Part shown: positions 1 to 14,010 of the stretch, piece after piece
Layout of the letters: the number at the start of each line of letters is the position of its first letter
Position numbering within the stretch: position 1 is the first letter of the stretch
From: Brachionus manjavacas
Taxonomy: Eukaryota; Rotifera; Eurotatoria; Ploima; Brachionidae
Assembly (NCBI GenBank): GCA_019054805.1
Contig: JAHQIY010000002.1
Location: forward strand, 9,176,001 to 9,240,000
Direction of reading: 5' to 3'
DNA length: 64,000 bases
Made by a program: the position numbers and the translations under genes
The notes under the pieces: model-generated
Told to the model about the DNA's origin: nothing
Database searches by the model: none
Seen by the model: only the letters and a program-made list of their open reading frames with translations

Positions 1-71
1 TTATCAAAAAGCGTTCGAAACTGTGGTCAAATTTCACCCTAATGCAGAAATAATGCTTTTTTCAAATGAGC
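1..71 (+). pseudogene. A4GALT-like glycosyltransferase, 5' piece (split by transposon)
   Basis: The first 71 bases match 13,702-13,771 almost base for base, where the same stretch lies inside a longer glycosyltransferase copy. The reading frame continues at 10,131, beyond a 10-kb insertion. The peptide here (motif KAFETVVKFHPNAEIMLF) is the N-terminal strand-helix region of the lumenal catalytic domain. The last eight bases, AAATGAGC (64-71), recur at 10,123-10,130 as a target-site duplication. The real start codon lies upstream of the window; copy 2 suggests a signal anchor there. Identification rests on the downstream half. Confidence 0.75.
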
Positions 72-117
72 GAGCAATAGACAATGAACATATTTTACCA
101 TACTATTCACTTGAATA

Positions 118-605
118 AAAAGTGTCCTTTTGTGTCCTTTTGTGTATTTTTGTAATGAATCTTTTTTTTCCTAGCAAAAAAAGTGTCCTTTTGTGTCCTT
201 TTGTGTACTTTTGTTATGAAAACTATTTATCCTAGCTAAAAAAGTGTCCTTTTGTGTACTTTTGTAATGAAAACTATTTACCCTAGCAAAAAAAGTGTCC
301 TTTTGTGTACTTTTGTGTACTTTTGTTATGAAAACAATTTTCTTTAGCAAAAAAAGTGTCCTTTTGTGTACTTTTGTTATGAAAACAATTTTCATTAGCA
401 AAAAAAGTGTCCTTTTGTGTACTTTTGTTGTGAAAACTATTTACCCTAGCAAAAAAAGTGTCCTTTTGTGTCCTTTTGTGTACTTTTGTTATGAAAACTA
501 TTTACCCTAGCAAAAAAAGTGTCCTCTTGTGTCCTTTTGTGTACTTTTGTTATGAAAACTATTTTCCCTAGCAAAAAAAGTGTCCTTTTGTGTACTTTAG
601 TTATA
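118..605. repeat. left subterminal tandem array of the KDZ element
   Basis: Roughly eight units of 55-70 bp built from AGTGTCCTTTTGTGT, ACTTTTGTTATGAAAAC and TATTTACCCTAGCAAAAA. Units differ by having one or two GTCCTTTTGT steps. The array is the inverted counterpart of 9,578-10,080, so together the two form long, repeat-built terminal inverted repeats. Such arrays may hold many transposase-binding sites. Short open frames here on either strand are by-products of the repeat and not genes. Confidence 0.9.
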
Positions 606-890
606 AATCCGCATTAACTAAATAAAAAAATTGTTCTCTTGAGTACTTTTGGAGACTTTTGTTACATAATCATTTTTCTTTAGTTAAAGGTGTGTTTTGT
701 TAACTTTTTTTAAATTTTTTAAAATATTGTTCAGAATTTTTAAACATAATTTTTCTATAAAAATTACAAATTTTTTAAAAAATACAGAAATTAAATCATG
801 ACGAGAATAAATTGAAGATTTCAAATATAGAATTTTTATAATTTTAAATACTGTATTAATACCTTTTTATGTAATTATAATAGTTTAGTA

Positions 891-3400
891 ATGGCGAAAA
901 AAAACTTGGTCCTTGAAAATTTTTGCAAGAATTTGGAAATCAGTCGCGTTCAGGAAAAACTTTATAAAATTCCATTCGAACAAGTTTTTGATGGAGAAAT
1001 TGGAAGTTACCTACATGGAATTGGGTAAACAATTTCATCTAATATAAAATTCATTATTTTAATTAAGCTTAGATAAATTTTTAATTTTCTATATATATTT
1101 CATGAATGATTTTTGAATTAGCATTAATATTTTAAATTAAAAATCTTAATTAAAATTTAAGATAATTATTTTTAAAGAGCAAGACATTCTGTTTGCAAAG
1201 AATTTTTAATTTGTCCACTTTTTACTGGTATTGCACATTTAATGCAACATTCTTATGTTTCCACCTTAACAACTTTGAGCGAGAAGAGCGTTTTTTATTC
1301 ATGTTTGGTAGCAAATCCTTCTACTGGCAAAAGTACTGCAATGTCTCTAATTAAAAAAGCCTAAATCAAATCGAAGAATACAAGAAGATTCCTAGAAAAA
1401 AATCAAATCTAATTAATGGTAAAATTTAAAATGAATATATTTGAAATAAGATGTATAAAAATTTTTAGCTGGTACAGTTGAAGCTTTATTAACAAACTTG
1501 GAAACAAATCCTTGCATGGTCAGCTTTTTTGACGAGTCCTCAACCTTTATGAGTTCGTTTGGTTTATATAAAGGTGGAGACGGTAAATAAGACCGAAGTG
1601 TTTACTTAGAATTGTATACCGGCCCAGATGGTTACGACAGAACACTGACAAGTAATCCCTTTTATATAGATCGACCGAGATTCAGTGTATGCTTATTGGG
1701 TAAATATTTTTTATTTCAAAATGTATCCAATGTTGAAATAACATTGAAATAGTGCATATTCAAAATAAAAAATGATGTTTTAAAATAAAAAATTATTTTA
1801 AATTACTGTTGCAAGCATTAAAAACTTAGTATTTTTTATTTTTCCATTATTTTCACCTTTTTTTATATTTTTTCATCTATTTAGAATAAAAAACTAAATG
1901 TAATATAAAAAAAAGATATTAAGAAAATATTAATAAAAAATTGAAAATAAAGGAGCAGACAAAACTGGAAATTAATGAATTTATGTTCCCCAAAGTACTT
2001 GAAGGGTGAATATAAATTTTTTTTTAAATTTTATTACTTATGTTTTAAACCAAAGATTTAAGAAGAGCATTTAATGAACATAATACATAAATCGGAAAAT
2101 AATACCTATATACCTAAAGAACCCATCATCTTTCGAACCAAAGATTTATTTTTTCCAAATTTTGTGCACTATAAATTTTAAAATTTTTTAAAGGAAAATT
2201 CAATTTAAAGTAGCGCTACGCCACATGGATTTTACGTAAATTTACGTCAAATTACGTTAATTTACGTAATTTTACGTAAAAAAAAGTAAATTTACGTAAA
2301 TTAACGTAAAGATAGAAAAGTAAAATTACGTTTATTAACGTAAAATAACGTAAATTTACGTAATTTTACGTAAAATTACGTAAATTAACGTAATTTGACG
2401 TAAATTTACGTAAAATCCATGTGGCGTAGCGCTACTGTATTTAAATTTTTGAATTCTTATTAATTCAACAATTAAAAATTAGGACACATGAGTGATTATA
2501 TTAATTTTGTGCGACAAGAAAAAAATTCACGAGATGATGGATTAATTCAACGTTTCCATATTTGTGCTCCAAGATCCATTTATTTCAAGACAGAGGATAT
2601 GGTTAAAATACCTCCTGAAAAATATTGTTTAACAGTTCTGTTGTACATCATAAGCAAACTAAATGAAATTCCTATTCAATATATTCTAGAAGAAAAAGCT
2701 ACTCATTATTTCTATAAAATATATGATTCTTTTAAAATCTTCGCTGAAAAGTTTGGAAATAACTACGATCTATTTATGGCGTAAGCTTATTATAAAATTT
2801 GATTTTTTAAAATGAGTTTTGATTGAAAGCGCAATGTGTGGAAAATCTGCTTCACAAATATTAAGAATTGCGATGTTTATCCATATTTTCAAAAAATCTT
2901 ACTCAATTTTAAAACAATTGGAAGCCATAGAACAATTGAATTTAAATATCCAGAAGATAAATCCAAGACTGGAATCGGCTATTATATCGATAACTAAGCA
3001 AAATAATAAATTCAATATAATAAGTGAAGAAAGTCTAAAAAAAGCTGTAAATTTGGTTAATTATTTTAATAAAAATAAATTATGCTTTGCTGAATATGAA
3101 AATATCGATTATACCCTTGATTTATTTCAAATAATGGATAGAATGGCGAAAAAAATAATTTTGCCTGAGAACATTAAAAATTATAATAGTAAATTTAATG
3201 AATTATCAAAAAAATTTTATTTTTTCCAACGGATGAGTCTCTTACTTTCAAAATTAACGATCTGAATCAAAGTTTGTCTAAAACTTATAAAAAAACGACA
3301 TTTGTACCGTGGCAATTGAATTGGAAAATTTGGGACTTGGCACTTTGACTGACGAAAAGTTAAATAGAATTTTAAAAAAAGTAAATTTTATTGAATTTTT
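891..3400 (+). pseudogene. DUF3987-like P-loop ATPase (intron-containing transposon gene)
   Basis: Proposed exons are 891-1024, 1178-1418, 1469-1699, 1953-2005, 2483-2780 and about 2817-3370, with GT..AG introns and phases that mostly agree. The second exon holds a Walker A motif (ANPSTGKST) and the third a Walker B (VSFFDESSTF) followed by a sensor-like strand (RFSVCLLG). Exon 5 has DDGLIQRFHICAP and the last exon SAMCGKSASQILRIA, both in the order and spacing seen in DUF3987 proteins, which are found in phages, bacteria and eukaryotic mobile elements. Breaks: a frameshift in an A-run near 1,357, a TAA in exon 3 near 1,588, and a T-run shift at 2817. The first and last may be sequencing errors. 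It probably acts as a helicase-like or DNA-remodelling partner of the transposase; this is inference. The family name is from memory of motif layout. Confidence 0.65.
2209..2436. mobile_element. palindromic MITE of TTTACGTAA units
   Basis: A 228-bp near-perfect palindrome inside an intron of the ATPase gene. The outer arms start AGTAGCGCTACGCCACATGG and end with the exact complement; the centre is a run of TTTACGTAAA-like steps, themselves palindromic. It has no coding capacity. A clear target duplication is not visible (AT-rich TTTAA-like flanks). It is probably a non-autonomous foldback or MITE nested in the larger transposon. Confidence 0.8.
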
Positions 3401-3660
3401 TATATTATTTTTATAAATGAGCCTAAAATAATTCAAAATATTTTAATTAATTTTTTTAATTTTTAACTTCATAAATAAAAATATTAATTATTCAAAGCCA
3501 AATAAGTATTTTACAAAGATAAATCAACATGAGCTAAATAAAAATAATCAAGCAATATCGAATCTTGCAAAAATTGGAATAAGCCCTGCTGATTTTATGT
3601 CTAGTAAATTAATTAAATCGATTTTTTACAACACTAAATTTTTAAATTCTATAAGGAGTG

Positions 3661-4780
3661 TACAAAGCGACTTTTAATGACTCATTAATATCTTTAAATA
3701 AAAAGAAAAATACAAAGAATCAATTTGATGATATTGTAGATATCCCAGAAGAATTTCTAGACTTCTCGACTCAAAAAGAGAGTAATTCAAGTAATAATGA
3801 TTTTCATATATGATTTTGTTAATATTCACATTTTTTACTATCAAAATCTATAAATTAAAAAGGAGTAAACAAAGCGAGCATCGAGACCAAAAAAACCAAT
3901 ATGTCCAATGAAAATGACTTATCGACGCCTAAAAGTTTTTTAATTTATTTTCGGAATTTTTGAAATAATTTTTTTAAAGGAAAAATGACTTTTGATGACC
4001 CTTTTTCATATCTAAAGAATAAGAAAAATACAGAGAAACAATTTGATGATAGAGTTGATATCCCAGAAGAATTTTTAGACTTCTCAACTCAAAAAGAGAT
4101 TAATTCAAATGGTAATGATTTTCAAAGAATGATTTTGTTAATATTCACATTTTTTACTATCAAAATCTATAAATTAAAAAGGAGTAAACAAAGCGAGCAT
4201 CGAGACCAAAAAACCAATATGTCCAATGAAAATGACTTATCGACGCCTAAAAGTTTTTTAATTTATTTTCGGAATTTTTTGAAATAATTTTTTTAAAGGA
4301 AAAATGACTTTTGATGACCCTTTTTCATATCTAAAGAATAAGAAAAATACAGAGAAACAATTTGATGATAGAGTTGATATCCCAGAAGAATTTTTAGACT
4401 TCTCAACTCAAAAAGAGATTAATTCAAATGGTAATGATTTTCAAAGAATGATTTTGTTAATATTCACATTTTTTACTATCAAAATCTATAAATTAAAAAG
4501 GAGTAAACAAAGCGAGCATCGAGACCAAAAAAACCAATATGTCCAATGAAAATGACTTATCGACGCCTAAAAGTTTTTTAATTTATTTTCGGAATTTTTG
4601 AAATAATTTTTTTAAAGGAAAAATGACTTTTGATGACCCTTTTTCATATCTAAAGAATAAGAAAAATACAGAGAAACAATTTGATGATAGAGTTGATATC
4701 CCAGAAGAATTTCTAGACTTCTCAACTCAAAAAGAGATTAATTCAAATGGTAATGATTTTAAAAGTATAATCTTTTGAAT
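3661..4780 (+). repeat. 319-bp tandem repeat, an amplified exon pair
   Basis: Units begin near 3,661 (diverged), 3,985, 4,304 and 4,623; the last three are nearly identical, period 319 bp. Each has an acceptor (TTTTTTAAAG), an exon beginning MTFDDPFSYLKNKK and ending near EINSNG, a donor GTAATG, a second acceptor (AATTAAAAAG) and a small exon ending DLSTPK. Exon phases let successive units splice together in frame, giving a protein repeat of about 80 residues. Copy number is likely to vary between elements. Confidence 0.8.
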
Positions 4781-5629
4781 ATTAAATTTTATTTACTAAT
4801 AAATAGGAAACTTTGAACATGAAATCTCAAAAGAGCTTATCAATGAGATAAGTTTTGTTGATAGGAATGAAATTAAAGCTAATGAACATAGACAAAATAT
4901 TTTATTTTCAACTCCACAAAAGACAAATAAAACCACCAATTTAGCTCAAAATGTTGAAATGGATTCAAGCAATAAAAAAAAAAACATGTCAAGCACTAAA
5001 AACATAAAGGATTTTCCAGTAAATATTAAAATTAATAATATAATTAAATTAAAATTTAAAACTAAGTAAAAAAAGTGAAATTAAAGGATCGTAAAATAGA
5101 ACCAAGTGTTTTGACTAAAATTTGTTAAAGAAATTTATTAATAAAAAAAAAAACATAATAATCAAATCATAATAATAACTAAAAGAAAGATATGCATTTA
5201 ATTTACAAAACATTATTTTTTTAAGACTTAAAAATAAGATTTTTTTTTAAAAAAATTATTTTTAAAAAATCAATTAATTTGAAAAAAACAGATAAAAAAT
5301 GCCATGACTTGACTTTGAAATTTTGACAAATGTATCTGAAGCTATAGTAATTCTTCTCTAATATATAAACACTTAAAACTTAAACATTTTAACTAAATTA
5401 AATTAAACTTAAATTAGTGATGATCAATAAATATTTGGAAATACAATGAAAATTTAAAAAGTAAATATCCTCCCTATACTGTTTGTACATTGTATTAATT
5501 TTAGAATCGTTTGACCCTGATTTATGTCTTGAACTTTCTGGACTTTTAAATAACTAAATTAAAATTTCATTTTATTATTAGTTAAATAATTAATTTGAAT
5601 TATAACAAAAACTTTTCTAATCTTTAACA

Positions 5630-5752
5630 TAGACAAATCCCTTAACCAGTGCTCCGCCACGGACCCCGTTTAATTTTTAAACAAATACTTCTCTAATCTT
5701 CAATATACACGAATCCCTAAACCAGGGCTCCGCCCCGGACCCCGTTTAGTTT
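5630..5752. repeat. two-copy GC-rich direct repeat
   Basis: Two neighbouring copies of about 60 bp ending GCTCCGCC(A/C)CGGACCCCGTTTA (centred at 5,660 and 5,730). Their GC content stands out sharply from the surrounding 80% AT sequence. No gene is visible. Confidence 0.6.
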
Positions 5753-6958
5753 TTTATTTATGATTAAAAAAACTAAAAAGAACATAGGAACATGGAAAAT
5801 AAAAAAAAATATTGATCAAGTACATAATGGTGCAGGATCAAATAAAATCAAATTCTGAAAAAGGAAAAACAGCAAATTTTTATTTTATAGTTAAATCTAA
5901 TTGACTATCCATGGAAATTTTAAGATTTTAATTAAATAACCTTTATTTTAATCTCTATTCAATTTAAAAAATAATATGAAGTCTGTTCATGCGATTTGAA
6001 TAGAAAGTCTAATTCAAACTGAATAAGACCTTTAGAGAATTAAAAATTCTCAAATAAATTTATAAAACTTCTTTTGCATGCATTTCTTTAAGATTAATAT
6101 TAAAAAAGATTCTTATATAAAAGGATCAAACAAAAGAAAATTAAGATCTAAGCTGCAACACAAAAACCCTTTTAAAACGAACAGATATCAATCGCTTTCA
6201 AAATTTCTTGGAAAATAATTCAAAAAAAGTAAAAAAAAAAATAACTGAAGATAATTCAAATCAAGATTCCAATATAGATACAAAGACCAAAAAAAAATCC
6301 AAATTAAAATTAAAATCAATGGAATCAAAAAGCGATGAGTACTTAATTATCGATCCGAAAGAGTTGTGAAATTTTAAAACTTTATTTTTTAATTTTGTTC
6401 GTAATTTCTTTATTATTTTTAATATCTAAATATTTGTAAATTAAACTAAATTGACGAAAATTAAAATCTTAATATGTAACTTTATCTATATTTGAACATA
6501 AAATTAAATTTTTCATTATAAATCACAAGAAAAGAATTTAATCTGCAAGCGAAGTAAAAGTCAATTATCAAAACCTCAATACTTTTTTCGATAAAAATTT
6601 CTTATGTTCGAGATTTTGTACAAAATTTGAAATAATAAACTATAAAATATTTTATAATTTTTTTTAATTATGGTCATTAGAACTTAAATGCTGAACTACA
6701 ATTAAGACATGCAAATAAAATCATCAATAAAAAATGTTAAAAATGTGTAAATTCGCCATGATACATGGTCCAAAAGCTGGTAGCTAAGCTTTTTAAATAT
6801 TTATTTATTTTTATTTAATAAAATTTATAAAAAAATTATTTTACAGACAAGTAAAAACTTTTCATATAATCTTTAAATGAAAATTTGTTTCAATATCAAT
6901 AAAAATTATAAAATTTTAACATATTTTTTAAGAAAATATCTTTATTAAAATATCGACT

Positions 6959-8800
6959 ATGGATACATTTTTGGAACCATTTAGTTGCATTGATGATCTT
7001 TTAGTGTTCCATCGAATTCTATCTAAATTAAAAAGTTCGGATATTTCAGTCATTATTAATATATTAAATATTTTCACAGGCAAGAATTTTGAAAAAACAA
7101 GCATCGAAAGTTATTTAAAAAGGATTAAATTTGGTTCTCAAATCTATCCATTAAATTTTTTCGAAAATATAAACGAGTTAGATATGGTGATAGACAGATT
7201 CAAATTAAACAATTTTTCAGTAGATCTAAAATATTGCCTATTTTGTCCCATCGAGCATCTGGATGTATTTAATTATTTTGATGTAGTCTTATATAGCTTT
7301 GATTTTAAAGCTAGCAAGGTCAACTATACAATAAAAATTTGTCTGAGATCTGGCAAAAAATACTATTTAAATTTTTACACTGATAAATGCGGTAAACGAA
7401 CTTTTTACTCGGATGTTCTGAAATCAAATTATTCTTTTTCGAATGAAATTATTTTTGATGAAAAAATTTTGCTTAGTTTGACTTGTGATATTTTATTTAA
7501 GCATTCTTCATTTAAATCTTTTACAAATTCCTATAATTTTTTTTTTTCACAATGTCAAAATCTAACAATAAAGATTTTATCTTCTTACAAGAAAAAAGAA
7601 TAACCGAATGCTATCTTTATTATAATTTATTGAAATCAAAAATAGAATTAGAAAACTTAAGTGACATTGATGCATTTTATATAAATCAATTGGATTTAAA
7701 TTTAAAAGAGTTCAATAGATCAGTTTTCTCCTTATTTAGTAATATTTGGGGTGGACCAATTCATAGAAATGCTTGTCAGTTTCAAAATTGCTCTCAAGTA
7801 ATTAGTATCGATGGAAATTATAAGATTAATCGATTAAAATGTATGTTTCCTTTAGTGAAAATGAAAAACTTAGAATTCGGTAGCAAATTTAAATTTTAAT
7901 TGTTAATAAATTCTAATCAATGATTATATTAGGTGATGTTGATATTGGATGTCCAAATTCACCTAAAAGAAAAAGCTATTTCTGTGAAGATCATCAACAT
8001 ATTGATCCGCTAGTTAAATTCAAGTACGGAAATACAACATTTGAATGTAGTTTAAGTCAAATAAAGCCAAGTAGAGGAAAACTTTCCAAAGAAAATTTAA
8101 ATATATATGATAGTTTTCTTAGCAAAAATGATCAAGTTATGTATTTGGTAGATTATTCTGATAAATCTCCTTTCTGGGCAACCGAAAAACAGATACCAAA
8201 TTCGATTTTAACATCATTTTTAAGAGATGTCCATACATATAACAATTCATGCAAAACACTAAAAACATTTGCCTTGCCGTGTGAAAAAAAATCAAGAACT
8301 GTAGGTGAGTTTTTAGCCGTCTACAACTGTGGAATTATATGTGGATTTAGGGAAATTTTTGGCTCAGAAACACTTGTTCAATCTACATGTTTTTTAATGG
8401 ATGTTTACGAAAATATTGAACAGAAACCTCTTTATATCGGATATGATGACGGTTGTCATCTAAAAAAATTTATTGACTCAAGCGAAAAGATTAAACTAGA
8501 AACAGCAAGATTAGTTGAATTAAGAAAAAATTATTATTATTGATCGATTCCATTATAAAGGGCACAAAAAGGCCAATGAATACTGCAAAACAAAAATGTA
8601 ACCCAAACAATTATGTTGAGATAAAGGATGCTAATACATCAATTGTAGAACAAGTAAATTTTTGGTTCTCAGGTTACAAATATGCATTAAAACATATGAA
8701 TAAGGAGCGATTTAAGTTTTTTATATTTTTAATTTGTAATGAATTTAATAAAGCAAATTTATCATTCAAAATTATTGAAAAATTAACACACAATAAATAA
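6959..8800 (+). pseudogene. KDZ-type (Dileera/Zisupton-like) transposase, frameshifted
   Basis: Four overlapping blocks (6,959-7,603; 7,552-7,899; 7,920-8,543; 8,540-8,800) read as one protein of about 600 residues with frame changes. In order: an N-terminal Cys-containing region (KYCLFCPIEHLD), CQFQNCSQVISIDGNYKINR with the first likely catalytic Asp, a Cys/His cluster (GCPNS...YFCEDHQH), CGIICGFREIFGSETL, then YIGYDDGCHLKKFI, and finally RFHYKGHK...NPNNYVEI and NTSIVEQVNFWF. DGN, YDxxC and NTSxxEQ are the hallmarks I associate with KDZ transposases, an RNase H-fold family; the Glu of NTSIVEQ would be the third catalytic residue. Frame changes at about 8,528 and 8,598 lie in or beside A-runs, and 7,900-7,919 may be a mini-intron. 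The gene is the cut-and-paste enzyme of the element. Confidence 0.8.
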
Positions 8801-9054
8801 TTATTAAAAATTCAGTTTTGCTTTTAATTAGTCATAATATTATAAAAAATTAATTATTTAATTTTTGATACAGATAATATAAAAAGAAAAATATTAAAAG
8901 AACATATATATAAATAAGATGTAACAAGATTAAAATGCCAAGATTTAAATGTTGAATTACAAAAATAACTAAAATGGGTTGTTTAAAAAAAACAATTTCA
9001 TGAAAAATCATTAATTGCAATGCCAGCAATGTTTCTTGATTTATTTTAAAGCGA

Positions 9055-9570
9055 AAGGGTTCCACATTAAATGGTTGAATCAAGACTTGTGCGTAAGTCA
9101 AAAACTTAAGTCATTTTTAAGTCATTTTTTGGTGAAGTCAAAGATTTGACTTGACTTAAGAAATTTTTTTTTAAAGTTAAGTCAAGTCAAATGACTTGAC
9201 TTTAAAAAAAATTTAATTTGTGTTTACGAAGGAATTTGATAAAAAAATCTTCTAATTAATTTACTAATATTTACAACATTAAACTTTAAAGAATCATAAT
9301 TAGGATTTGATGCTTGATAACCGTTATTCATTAGCTTCCCAAAAAAAAATCAAGACATTCTAAGTCAAGTCAAGTCAAATGACTTAACTTTAAAAGGAAA
9401 AATCTTAAGTGATGGAATTAGATGGTGGAACCACAAAGGTTCCACATTAAATGGTGGAACGTCTGGTTGAATCACAAAAGTTCCACATTAAATGTTGGAA
9501 CCACAAAAGTTCCACATTAAATGTTGGAACCACAAAAGTTCCACATTAAATGGTGGAACCACAAAGGATT
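9055..9570. repeat. AAGTCA palindromes and GTTCCACATTAAATG tandem repeats
   Basis: Two interleaved repeat types. First, 9,094-9,205 and 9,360-9,412 hold steps of AAGTCA arranged as palindromes (AAGTCAAATGACTT). Second, 9,058-9,075 and 9,428-9,570 hold about 29-35-bp units of GTTCCACATTAAATGTTGGAAC joined by CCACAAAA. The second type flanks the first on both sides, suggesting one inserted into the other. No gene. Confidence 0.75.
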
Positions 9571-9577
9571 TATAACA

Positions 9578-10080
9578 AAAGAAAACAAAAGTACACAAAA
9601 GGACGCTTATTTTGCTAATGAAAATTGTTTTCATAACAAAAGTACACAAAAGTACACAAAAGGACACTTATTTTGCTAGGGAAAAAAAGATTCATAACAA
9701 AAGTACACAAAAGGACACAAAAGGACACTTTTTTTGCCAGGGAAAAAAAGATTCTTTACAAAAGTACACAAAAGGACACAAAAGGACACTTTTTTTGCTA
9801 GGGTAAATAGTTTTCATAACAAAAGTACACAAAAGGACACAAAAGGACACTTTTTTTGCTAGGGAAAAAAAGATTCATAACAAAAGTACACAAAAGGACA
9901 CAAAAGGACACTTTTTTTGCCAGGGAAAAAAAGATTCTTTACAAAAGTACACAAAAGGACACAAAAGGACACTTTTTTTGCTAGGGAAAAAAAGGATTCA
10001 TAACAAAAGGACACAAAAGGACACTTTTTTTGCTAGGGTAAATAGTTTTCATAGCAAAAATACACAAAAGGACAATTTTT
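9578..10080. repeat. right subterminal tandem array of the KDZ element
   Basis: Inverted counterpart of the array at 118-605. Units are ATAACAAAAGTACACAAAAGG, one or two ACACAAAAGG steps, ACTTTTTTTGCTAGGG(A/T)AA, repeated about eight times. Together with the left array it gives the element fold-back ends. The transposon ends 42 bp further on, at 10,122. Confidence 0.9.
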
Positions 10081-10130
10081 TTGCATATTAATTTTTATTT
10101 AAAAGTTCATTGTCAATCCATGAAATGAGC

Positions 10131-13512: not shown

Positions 13513-14010
13513 TGAGAAGAAATATTCGGTGCATGAGTTTTTTTCTCTTTTTAATTGCTTGTTTTCTTTTTATTGCTTCTTACAAGACTATGTTTACAAA
13601 AACCGTTGACACTGAACTTAATTTTTATTATTTGTCTCATACTCCATCCAATGATAAATTTCATATTTTTTGATTTGGCGAGGAAGCTCTTTTTCACTCA
13701 TTTATCAAAAAGCGTTCGAAACTGTGGTCAAATTTCACCCTAATGCAGAAATAATGCTTTTTTCAAATGAGCTTGAAGATGACTGGTTTTCTTCTTTAAA
13801 CAAAAGTGGTAATATATTTGTTGTGCGTTTCAATATGCTTGAATTTTTTTATCGGAAGAAAGGTTGGAATTTCGCCGAAAAAGCGATTCGTTTATTTAAC
13901 GGAGAAAAACTTAATAACCTAACAGTGACACATAATCATTTTTCAAATTTTCTTCGTCTTTTTCTCGTTTATTATTTTGGTGGGTTGTATCTTGATATAG
14001 AAATGATTGT
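13513..14010 (+). pseudogene. A4GALT-like glycosyltransferase copy 2, truncated
   Basis: ATG at 13,513 opens a typical type II signal anchor (Arg-Arg start, then a hydrophobic run SFFLFLIACFLFIASY), followed by a stem and the catalytic domain start. One frame change sits in the T-run at 13,669. From 13,702 it is nearly identical to copy 1 and keeps the empty transposon site at 13,764-13,771. The DxD metal site reads DIE rather than DID, which should harm catalysis. After 14,010 the match stops abruptly, so the Gb3-synthase C-terminal half is missing. It is a partial gene duplication joined to the end of an unrelated gene on the other strand. Confidence 0.75.

What the first reader, a model, noticed from the sequence alone, without database searches (positions are those of the whole stretch)
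891..3400. DUF3987-like ATPase encoded beside a KDZ transposase
Walker A, Walker B and downstream motifs are seen in spliced order inside the transposon boundaries. A P-loop ATPase partner would make this a two-component transposition system, like the ATPase partners of Tn7-type bacterial transposons (analogy only).
Basis: partly seen in the sequence, partly recalled or inferred. Interest (0 to 1): 0.85.

Follow-up and report, generated by a model that had tools for sequence, protein, structure and literature searches.

The report
KDZ transposon carrying helicase-like ATPase
A DNA transposon of the KDZ superfamily in an AT-rich eukaryotic genome carries, besides its transposase gene, a second gene for an ATPase of a kind annotated as a DNA helicase in phages and bacterial mobile elements, and the two genes occur together in several divergent branches of the element.

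Summary
Window 72-10122 is one KDZ DNA transposon: same tips and a perfect 8-bp target duplication in 7 of 7 near-identical copies, plus an empty paralogous site. It holds two genes on one strand: a multi-exon ATPase gene (891 to at least 3380) whose exons match Pfam DUF3987 in order (60 bits for pieces joined from copy L015), and a CxC5+KDZ transposase gene (6959-8800). The ATPase gene is inside the boundaries in 5 of 7 copies; the other 2 keep a 21-bp scar of it. ATPase exons precede the transposase on the same strand in 11 of 16 transposase loci read. ATPase and transposase distances correlate (r 0.77; 4 of 720 permutations as high), and against subfamilies L025 and L053 ATPase exons give dN/dS 0.03-0.11. 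So the ATPase is a long-standing part of the element, not a neighbour. Its nearest annotated relatives are phage DNA helicases, which makes a helicase or remodelling partner likelier than a Tn7 TnsC-like selector; neither was tested and the fold is unresolved. The window copy is broken.

The parts
64..71 (.). left copy of the 8-bp target-site duplication, AAATGAGC
72..10122 (+). whole KDZ element of this copy, 10051 bp
   Evidence: same tips in 7 of 7 near-identical copies; empty paralogous site
72..89 (+). left terminus GAGCAATAGACAATGAAC; its last 10 bases (GACAATGAAC) are inverted at the right end
10105..10122 (-). right terminus GTTCATTGTCAATCCATG
10123..10130 (.). right copy of the target-site duplication
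117..598 (+). left subterminal tandem array (61-bp units built on GTGTCCTTTT / GTGTACTTTT), candidate transposase binding region
   Evidence: binding is inference
9563..10084 (-). right subterminal array, the same kind of units inverted
891..1024 (+). ATPase gene, exon 1 (ATG at 891; GT donor at 1025)
   Evidence: read; matched in L025 and L028
1178..1418 (+). ATPase exon 2 with Walker A (1311-1334); in this copy a 1-base deletion leads to TAA
1469..1699 (+). ATPase exon 3 with Walker B (1516-1536); one TAA in this copy
   Evidence: DUF3987 33.9 bits
2483..2780 (+). ATPase exon 4 with DDGLIQRF motif (2533-2556)
   Evidence: DUF3987 profile 211-243
2830..3380 (+). ATPase exon 5, C-terminal part; frame break at a poly-A run near 3205 in this copy
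   Evidence: DUF3987 profile 311-355
3498..5069 (+). probable tail exons of the ATPase gene, with a 319-bp unit repeated 3.5 times (3695-4798)
   Evidence: ORFs, tandem array; assignment to the gene is inference
6959..7601 (+). transposase gene, first part, CxC5 cysteine cluster
   Evidence: PF18718 E 1.2e-5; 3.6e-10 in L015
7552..7899 (+). transposase, next part; proposed first catalytic D in SIDGN (7810-7812)
   Evidence: role of the residue inferred
7932..8543 (+). transposase, KDZ core; proposed second D in YDDGCH (8445-8450); frame break at its end in this copy
   Evidence: PF18758 E 7.6e-4
8518..8800 (+). transposase C-terminal part; proposed E in VEQVNFWF (8648-8650)
   Evidence: role inferred

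Best explanation
A KDZ DNA transposon with two genes. The transposase (CxC5 + KDZ, presumably DDE-type) acts at the 18-bp termini, probably bound through the inverted subterminal arrays, and inserts with 8-bp duplications. The second gene makes a DUF3987 P-loop ATPase that entered this KDZ lineage, probably from a bacterial or phage replication module, before the subfamilies in this genome split. It most likely acts as a DNA helicase or remodeller for the same element: opening DNA at the ends or target, or helping to copy and repair DNA after excision. Shown: two genes in one bounded element, recurrence in divergent branches, congruent distances, signs of purifying selection. Inferred: the enzyme activity, the step at which it acts, and the prokaryotic origin.
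For: Perfect 8-bp TSD at identical tips in 7 of 7 copies, 6 independent sites. ATPase gene inside them in 5 of 7; the other 2 keep a 21-bp match to its Walker B exon, absent from 3 of 3 sampled copies of the repeat that fills the gap. ATPase exons upstream of the transposase, same strand and order, in 11 of 16 transposase loci read, in six branches by my grouping. Of 24 ATPase places, 9 have a transposase match within 10 kb downstream on the same strand, 0.03 expected by random placement (copies are not independent). Distances congruent, r 0.77, 4 of 720 permutations. dN/dS of ATPase exons 0.03 and 0.11 against L025 and 0.05 and 0.09 against L053; transposase 0.19-0.25 against L025, 0.30 against L053. 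DUF3987 E 2.2e-16 and 7 of 7 relatives match; PHROG 2373 'DNA helicase' in 5 of 7, best 1.3e-6, the family of E. coli YfjI.
Against: No activity is shown. The two copies without the ATPase gene moved after losing it (same junction, different TSDs), so it is not needed in cis; they also lack the end of the transposase gene, so supply in trans is possible. 8 of 24 ATPase places have no transposase match in the roughly 7 kb read beyond them. Against L055, a 94% identical truncated copy, dN/dS is 0.15 in one exon but 0.97 in another; among the near-identical copies several values are near or above 1. Profile comparison with a shallow YfjI alignment is weak (39.5%). PDB holds no sequence relative, phages none by tblastn, NCBIfam none. 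Each of the five ATPase copies of this family is broken somewhere.
Confidence: 0.55

Rival explanations
1. Target-selection regulator: the ATPase forms an ATP-dependent filament or ring that brings the transposase to target DNA, as TnsC does for Tn7.
For: A separately encoded P-loop ATPase beside a transposase, conserved with it.
Against: Nearest families are phage DNA helicases; no Pfam AAA family was listed for any of 7 members at E up to 1 (HMMER's filters can drop weak matches). The insertion flanks of 7 copies, looked at only by eye, show no shared target.
Confidence: 0.15
2. Passive or indirectly useful cargo: a captured gene kept for something other than transposition, such as escape from silencing.
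For: KDZ elements carry accessory genes, for example TET/JBP in fungi (PMC12730594, abstract and sections 4 and 19); ATPase-less derivatives moved.
Against: Retention across divergent branches with congruent distances, and lower dN/dS than the transposase in the L025 and L053 comparisons.
Confidence: 0.2
3. Replicative element: the ATPase is the helicase of an extrachromosomal or copy-and-paste phase.
For: DUF3987 relatives sit with primases in bacterial mobile elements (PMC5862659 passages; PMC10803314 passage); one of 7 members also has a weak match to PHROG 3022, DNA primase (E 0.43).
Against: No primase or polymerase family was listed for the 9 window pieces scanned with Pfam; no circular or multimeric form was looked for.
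Confidence: 0.1

Closest known systems
KDZ (Zisupton) DNA transposons
   Same: KDZ transposase domain, CxC cysteine cluster, 8-bp TSD (Zisupton 8 bp per PMC12730594 section 4), multi-exon genes (PMC9297572 passages)
   Different: second gene is a DUF3987 ATPase; of 16 papers in the library with 'KDZ transpos' or 'DUF3987', none holds both
TET/JBP-bearing KDZ elements of fungi
   Same: KDZ element with an accessory enzyme gene (PMC12730594, abstract and sections 4 and 19)
   Different: accessory enzyme is a dioxygenase acting on DNA methylation
KolobokH transposons
   Same: eukaryotic DDD/E transposon with an accessory helicase, RecQ (PMC9587614 passages)
   Different: other superfamily; RecQ is encoded downstream of the transposase domain
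DUF3987 proteins of phages, satellites and prophages (E. coli YfjI)
   Same: same Pfam and PHROG family
   Different: prokaryotic, no introns; YfjI sits in prophage CP4-57 near an integrase, not beside a KDZ transposase
Tn7 with TnsC
   Same: ATPase plus transposase in one element (recalled)
   Different: no homology shown; Tn7 features not tested

Membership tests
KDZ DNA transposons | KDZ transposase domain PF18758 | tested here: met
   34 bits, above cut-off, in the C3 copy of the same family; in the window E 7.6e-4, below cut-off
KDZ DNA transposons | KDZ-associated cysteine cluster | tested here: met
   CxC5 40.5 bits in L015, above cut-off; 25.9 bits in the window, just below
KDZ DNA transposons | 8-bp target-site duplication | tested here: met
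   7 of 7 copies
KDZ DNA transposons | terminal inverted repeats | tested here: met
   10 bases inverted within the 18-bp tips, long inverted subterminal arrays
KDZ DNA transposons | active DDE catalytic residues | not testable with these tools
   candidate residues named from conserved motifs only
DUF3987 ATPases (PF13148) | score above curated cut-off (27 bits) | tested here: met
   33.9 bits for one window exon, 60.4 for joined exons of L015
DUF3987 ATPases (PF13148) | Walker A and Walker B in order | tested here: met
   Walker A changed in L025 (GTS) and missing in L030
DUF3987 ATPases (PF13148) | ATP hydrolysis or DNA unwinding | not testable with these tools
   prediction only, PMC5862659 (passages)
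Tn7-type two-component system | AAA+ fold of the ATPase partner | tested here: inconclusive
   no AAA family listed by Pfam at E up to 1; structure job failed
Tn7-type two-component system | ATPase directs target choice | not testable with these tools
   needs experiment

The most novel reading that the evidence does not exclude
A eukaryotic DDE-type transposon that depends on a phage-type helicase ATPase as an obligate partner encoded by the element, so that DNA unwinding or helicase-driven synthesis is part of KDZ transposition in this lineage.
Probability: 0.3. Interest if true: 0.8.

Novelty: new variant of a known kind. Interest (0 to 1): 0.6.

Why it matters
Eukaryotic cut-and-paste transposons are usually pictured as needing only a transposase. 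A conserved ATPase of prokaryotic replication type inside a KDZ lineage would show that an energy-using partner can be a lasting part of such an element, would give DUF3987 a place in eukaryotes, and offers a genetic test (with or without ATPase) of what such partners do.

Tried and rejected
Unlinked host gene: rejected, the ATPase exons lie inside exact element ends in 5 of 7 copies. Chance order of motifs: rejected (0 hits of the same queries on the reversed sequences). ATPase-less copies as the ancestral form: rejected by the 21-bp scar (E 7e-5 against the window alone), found in the ATPase exon and in both such copies but in 0 of 3 copies of the filler repeat that I read. Relatives in viral contigs: 28 pattern matches, 0 confirmed. 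Phages by tblastn: none. NCBIfam: none for 7 members. PDB by sequence: no relative. hhalign of A2 with the YfjI alignment A3: 39.5%, weak. Structure of a YfjI-like protein: not obtained. An exact-string search for the empty site found nothing because one base differs; the alignment has 2 mismatches in 309 bases, neither in the duplicated 8 bases. A first DNA query for the filler repeat used wrong coordinates and hit the transposase region; it was redone, and three transposase fragments that it showed by accident (C11, C12 twice) were kept in the count. Species: not identified.

Full report

The element. Seven near-identical copies share the same tips, 5'-GAGCAATAGACAATGAAC and GTTCATTGTCAATCCATG-3', and each is flanked by a perfect 8-bp duplication: AAATGAGC (window), AAATTTTA, TGAAAAAA, GGAATTGG, CGTAATTT (twice, same flanks, so one insertion duplicated later) and ATTTTAGG. 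Joining the window's two flanks gives 309 bp that match window 13702-14010 with 2 mismatches and no gap, an empty paralogous site; the flanking gene is glycosyltransferase-like (PF04488). Inside each tip lies an array of about 61-bp units built on GTGTCCTTTT, inverted at the other end.

The genes. On the + strand, exons between 891 and 3380 match DUF3987 in the order of the profile. The pieces of copy L015, joined at approximate splice points, reach 60.4 bits over profile 131-330 of 364. A Walker A, a Walker B and a DDGLIQRF motif follow in that order. Downstream, 6959-8800 encodes CxC5 and KDZ; the curated KDZ model passes its cut-off in another copy (C3, L013), not in the window. The window copy is broken in both genes, and each of the five ATPase-bearing copies has at least one stop or frame break in its ATPase exons (read).

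With and without the ATPase. Five of seven copies (window, L013, L015, L017, L019) hold both genes. Two (L011, L021) lack roughly the window equivalents of 720-5063 and 8714-9563. In place of the first stretch they have 21 bases identical to the Walker B exon followed by about 580 bases of another repeat, which has 18 other full-length matches at 97-99% and many partial ones. The 21-base match was sought as a 20-base string: it is present in the ATPase copies and in L011 and L021, and absent from 3 of 3 copies of the filler repeat that I read. These two copies therefore descend from an ATPase-bearing element, and they moved afterwards, since they share the junction but have different duplications. 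Because they also lack the end of the transposase gene, they do not show that transposition works without the ATPase.

Relatives in the same genome. A transposase exon search gave 35 matches; ATPase searches gave 11, 17, 17 and 30. By hand I collapsed these to 29 transposase places (three of them added) and 24 ATPase places. I read 16 transposase loci with flanks: window, L011, L013, L015, L017, L019, L021, L023, L025, L026, L027, L028, L029 and L030, read because of the transposase, and L052 and L053, read because of the ATPase. ATPase exons lie upstream on the same strand in 11 of the 16: window, L013, L015, L017, L019, L025, L026, L027, L030, L052, L053; that is 9 of the 14 read because of the transposase. 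In L026 only the C-terminal ATPase exon was matched, and in L052 and L053 only the first parts of the transposase. Of the other five, L028 keeps a match to exon 1 only (E 1e-6), L029 has ATPase exon matches about 12 kb upstream, L011 and L021 carry the scar, and L023, a transposase fragment, has nothing.

Of the 24 ATPase places, 11 are linked: 9 within 10 kb and one at 14.6 kb, plus C4 (L052). Eight show no transposase match in the roughly 7 kb read beyond them (L001/L031, L002/L032, L054, L055, L057, L058, L059, L060), and 5 were not read far enough. In three of the eight (L054, L055, L002/L032), retroelement-like frames, recognised by eye only, lie in between. Random placement would give 0.03 linked pairs within 10 kb downstream on the same strand; copies are not independent, so the weight lies on the divergent branches (window family, L025, L030, L053, L026/L027, L052).

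Co-evolution and selection. Pairwise identities of the ATPase Walker B exon and of the transposase CxC region over six loci (14 of 15 pairs; one dropped for short overlap) correlate with r 0.77; 4 of 720 permutations do as well. dN/dS of ATPase exons: against L025 0.03 (75 codons) and 0.11 (57), against L053 0.05 (41) and 0.09 (95); against the truncated near copy L055 0.15 (98) but 0.97 (60); against more distant loci 0.18-0.48 where not saturated. Transposase: 0.19-0.25 against L025, 0.30 against L053. Codons with stops were dropped and dS is high, so the figures are rough. Among near-identical copies the ratios scatter from 0 to 1.5, as for decaying copies.

What the ATPase is. All 7 members of A2 match DUF3987 and 5 of 7 match PHROG 2373, DNA helicase, best 1.3e-6, the family of E. 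coli YfjI in prophage CP4-57. The passages that I saw call DUF3987 a predicted helicase associated with primases (PMC5862659), a putative phage helicase (PMC8004638) or part of a satellite primase definition (PMC10803314). I saw no structure or biochemical test of DUF3987, and my attempt at a model failed.

Comparison. KDZ elements with accessory genes are known (PMC12730594 abstract and sections 4 and 19; PMC12477816 passages), and a DDD/E transposon with a helicase is known (KolobokH with RecQ, PMC9587614 passages). In the library, 16 papers hold 'KDZ transpos' or 'DUF3987' and none holds both; one paper holds PF13148, a phage-satellite paper; broader searches listed 15 of 16 and 12 of 994 papers, of which I saw passages of a few. 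The founding KDZ papers (Iyer 2014, not held; Boehne 2012, not looked up) were not read, so the pair may be mentioned there. I rate it a new variant of a known kind.

Mechanism. The most likely reading is an element-encoded DNA helicase or remodeller serving transposition or the repair that follows. The Tn7-like target selector remains possible but has no support beyond the presence of an ATPase.

Noticed in passing
window 2207-2438: A palindromic array of TTTACGTAAA units sits in an ATPase intron of the window copy only; the four other ATPase-bearing copies of the family align straight across it.
   Followed up: partly
window 3695-4798: A 319-bp unit with an exon-like segment is repeated 3.5 times in the tail of the ATPase gene; L015 shows fewer units.
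   Followed up: no
L011 and L021; L049, L050, L051: The filler in the ATPase-less copies belongs to a repeat with 18 other full-length matches, often paired with an inverted half close by; it includes a short frame with a basic GRKKGSKNK stretch, read by eye.
   Followed up: partly
genome, 8 places: Eight further left ends, 81-88% identical to the element's, have no ATPase or transposase match listed close by in the searches made; they may be non-autonomous relatives.
   Followed up: no
L001 and L002: Two DUF3987 genes of another subfamily share about 2.2 kb at 86-90% identity, with no transposase match in the roughly 7 kb read beyond them; they may belong to a separate element.
   Followed up: partly
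window 17600-64000: Many retroelement-like frames (integrase-, reverse-transcriptase- and gag-like by eye); an endonuclease-type frame at 38741-39856 matches PF14529.
   Followed up: no
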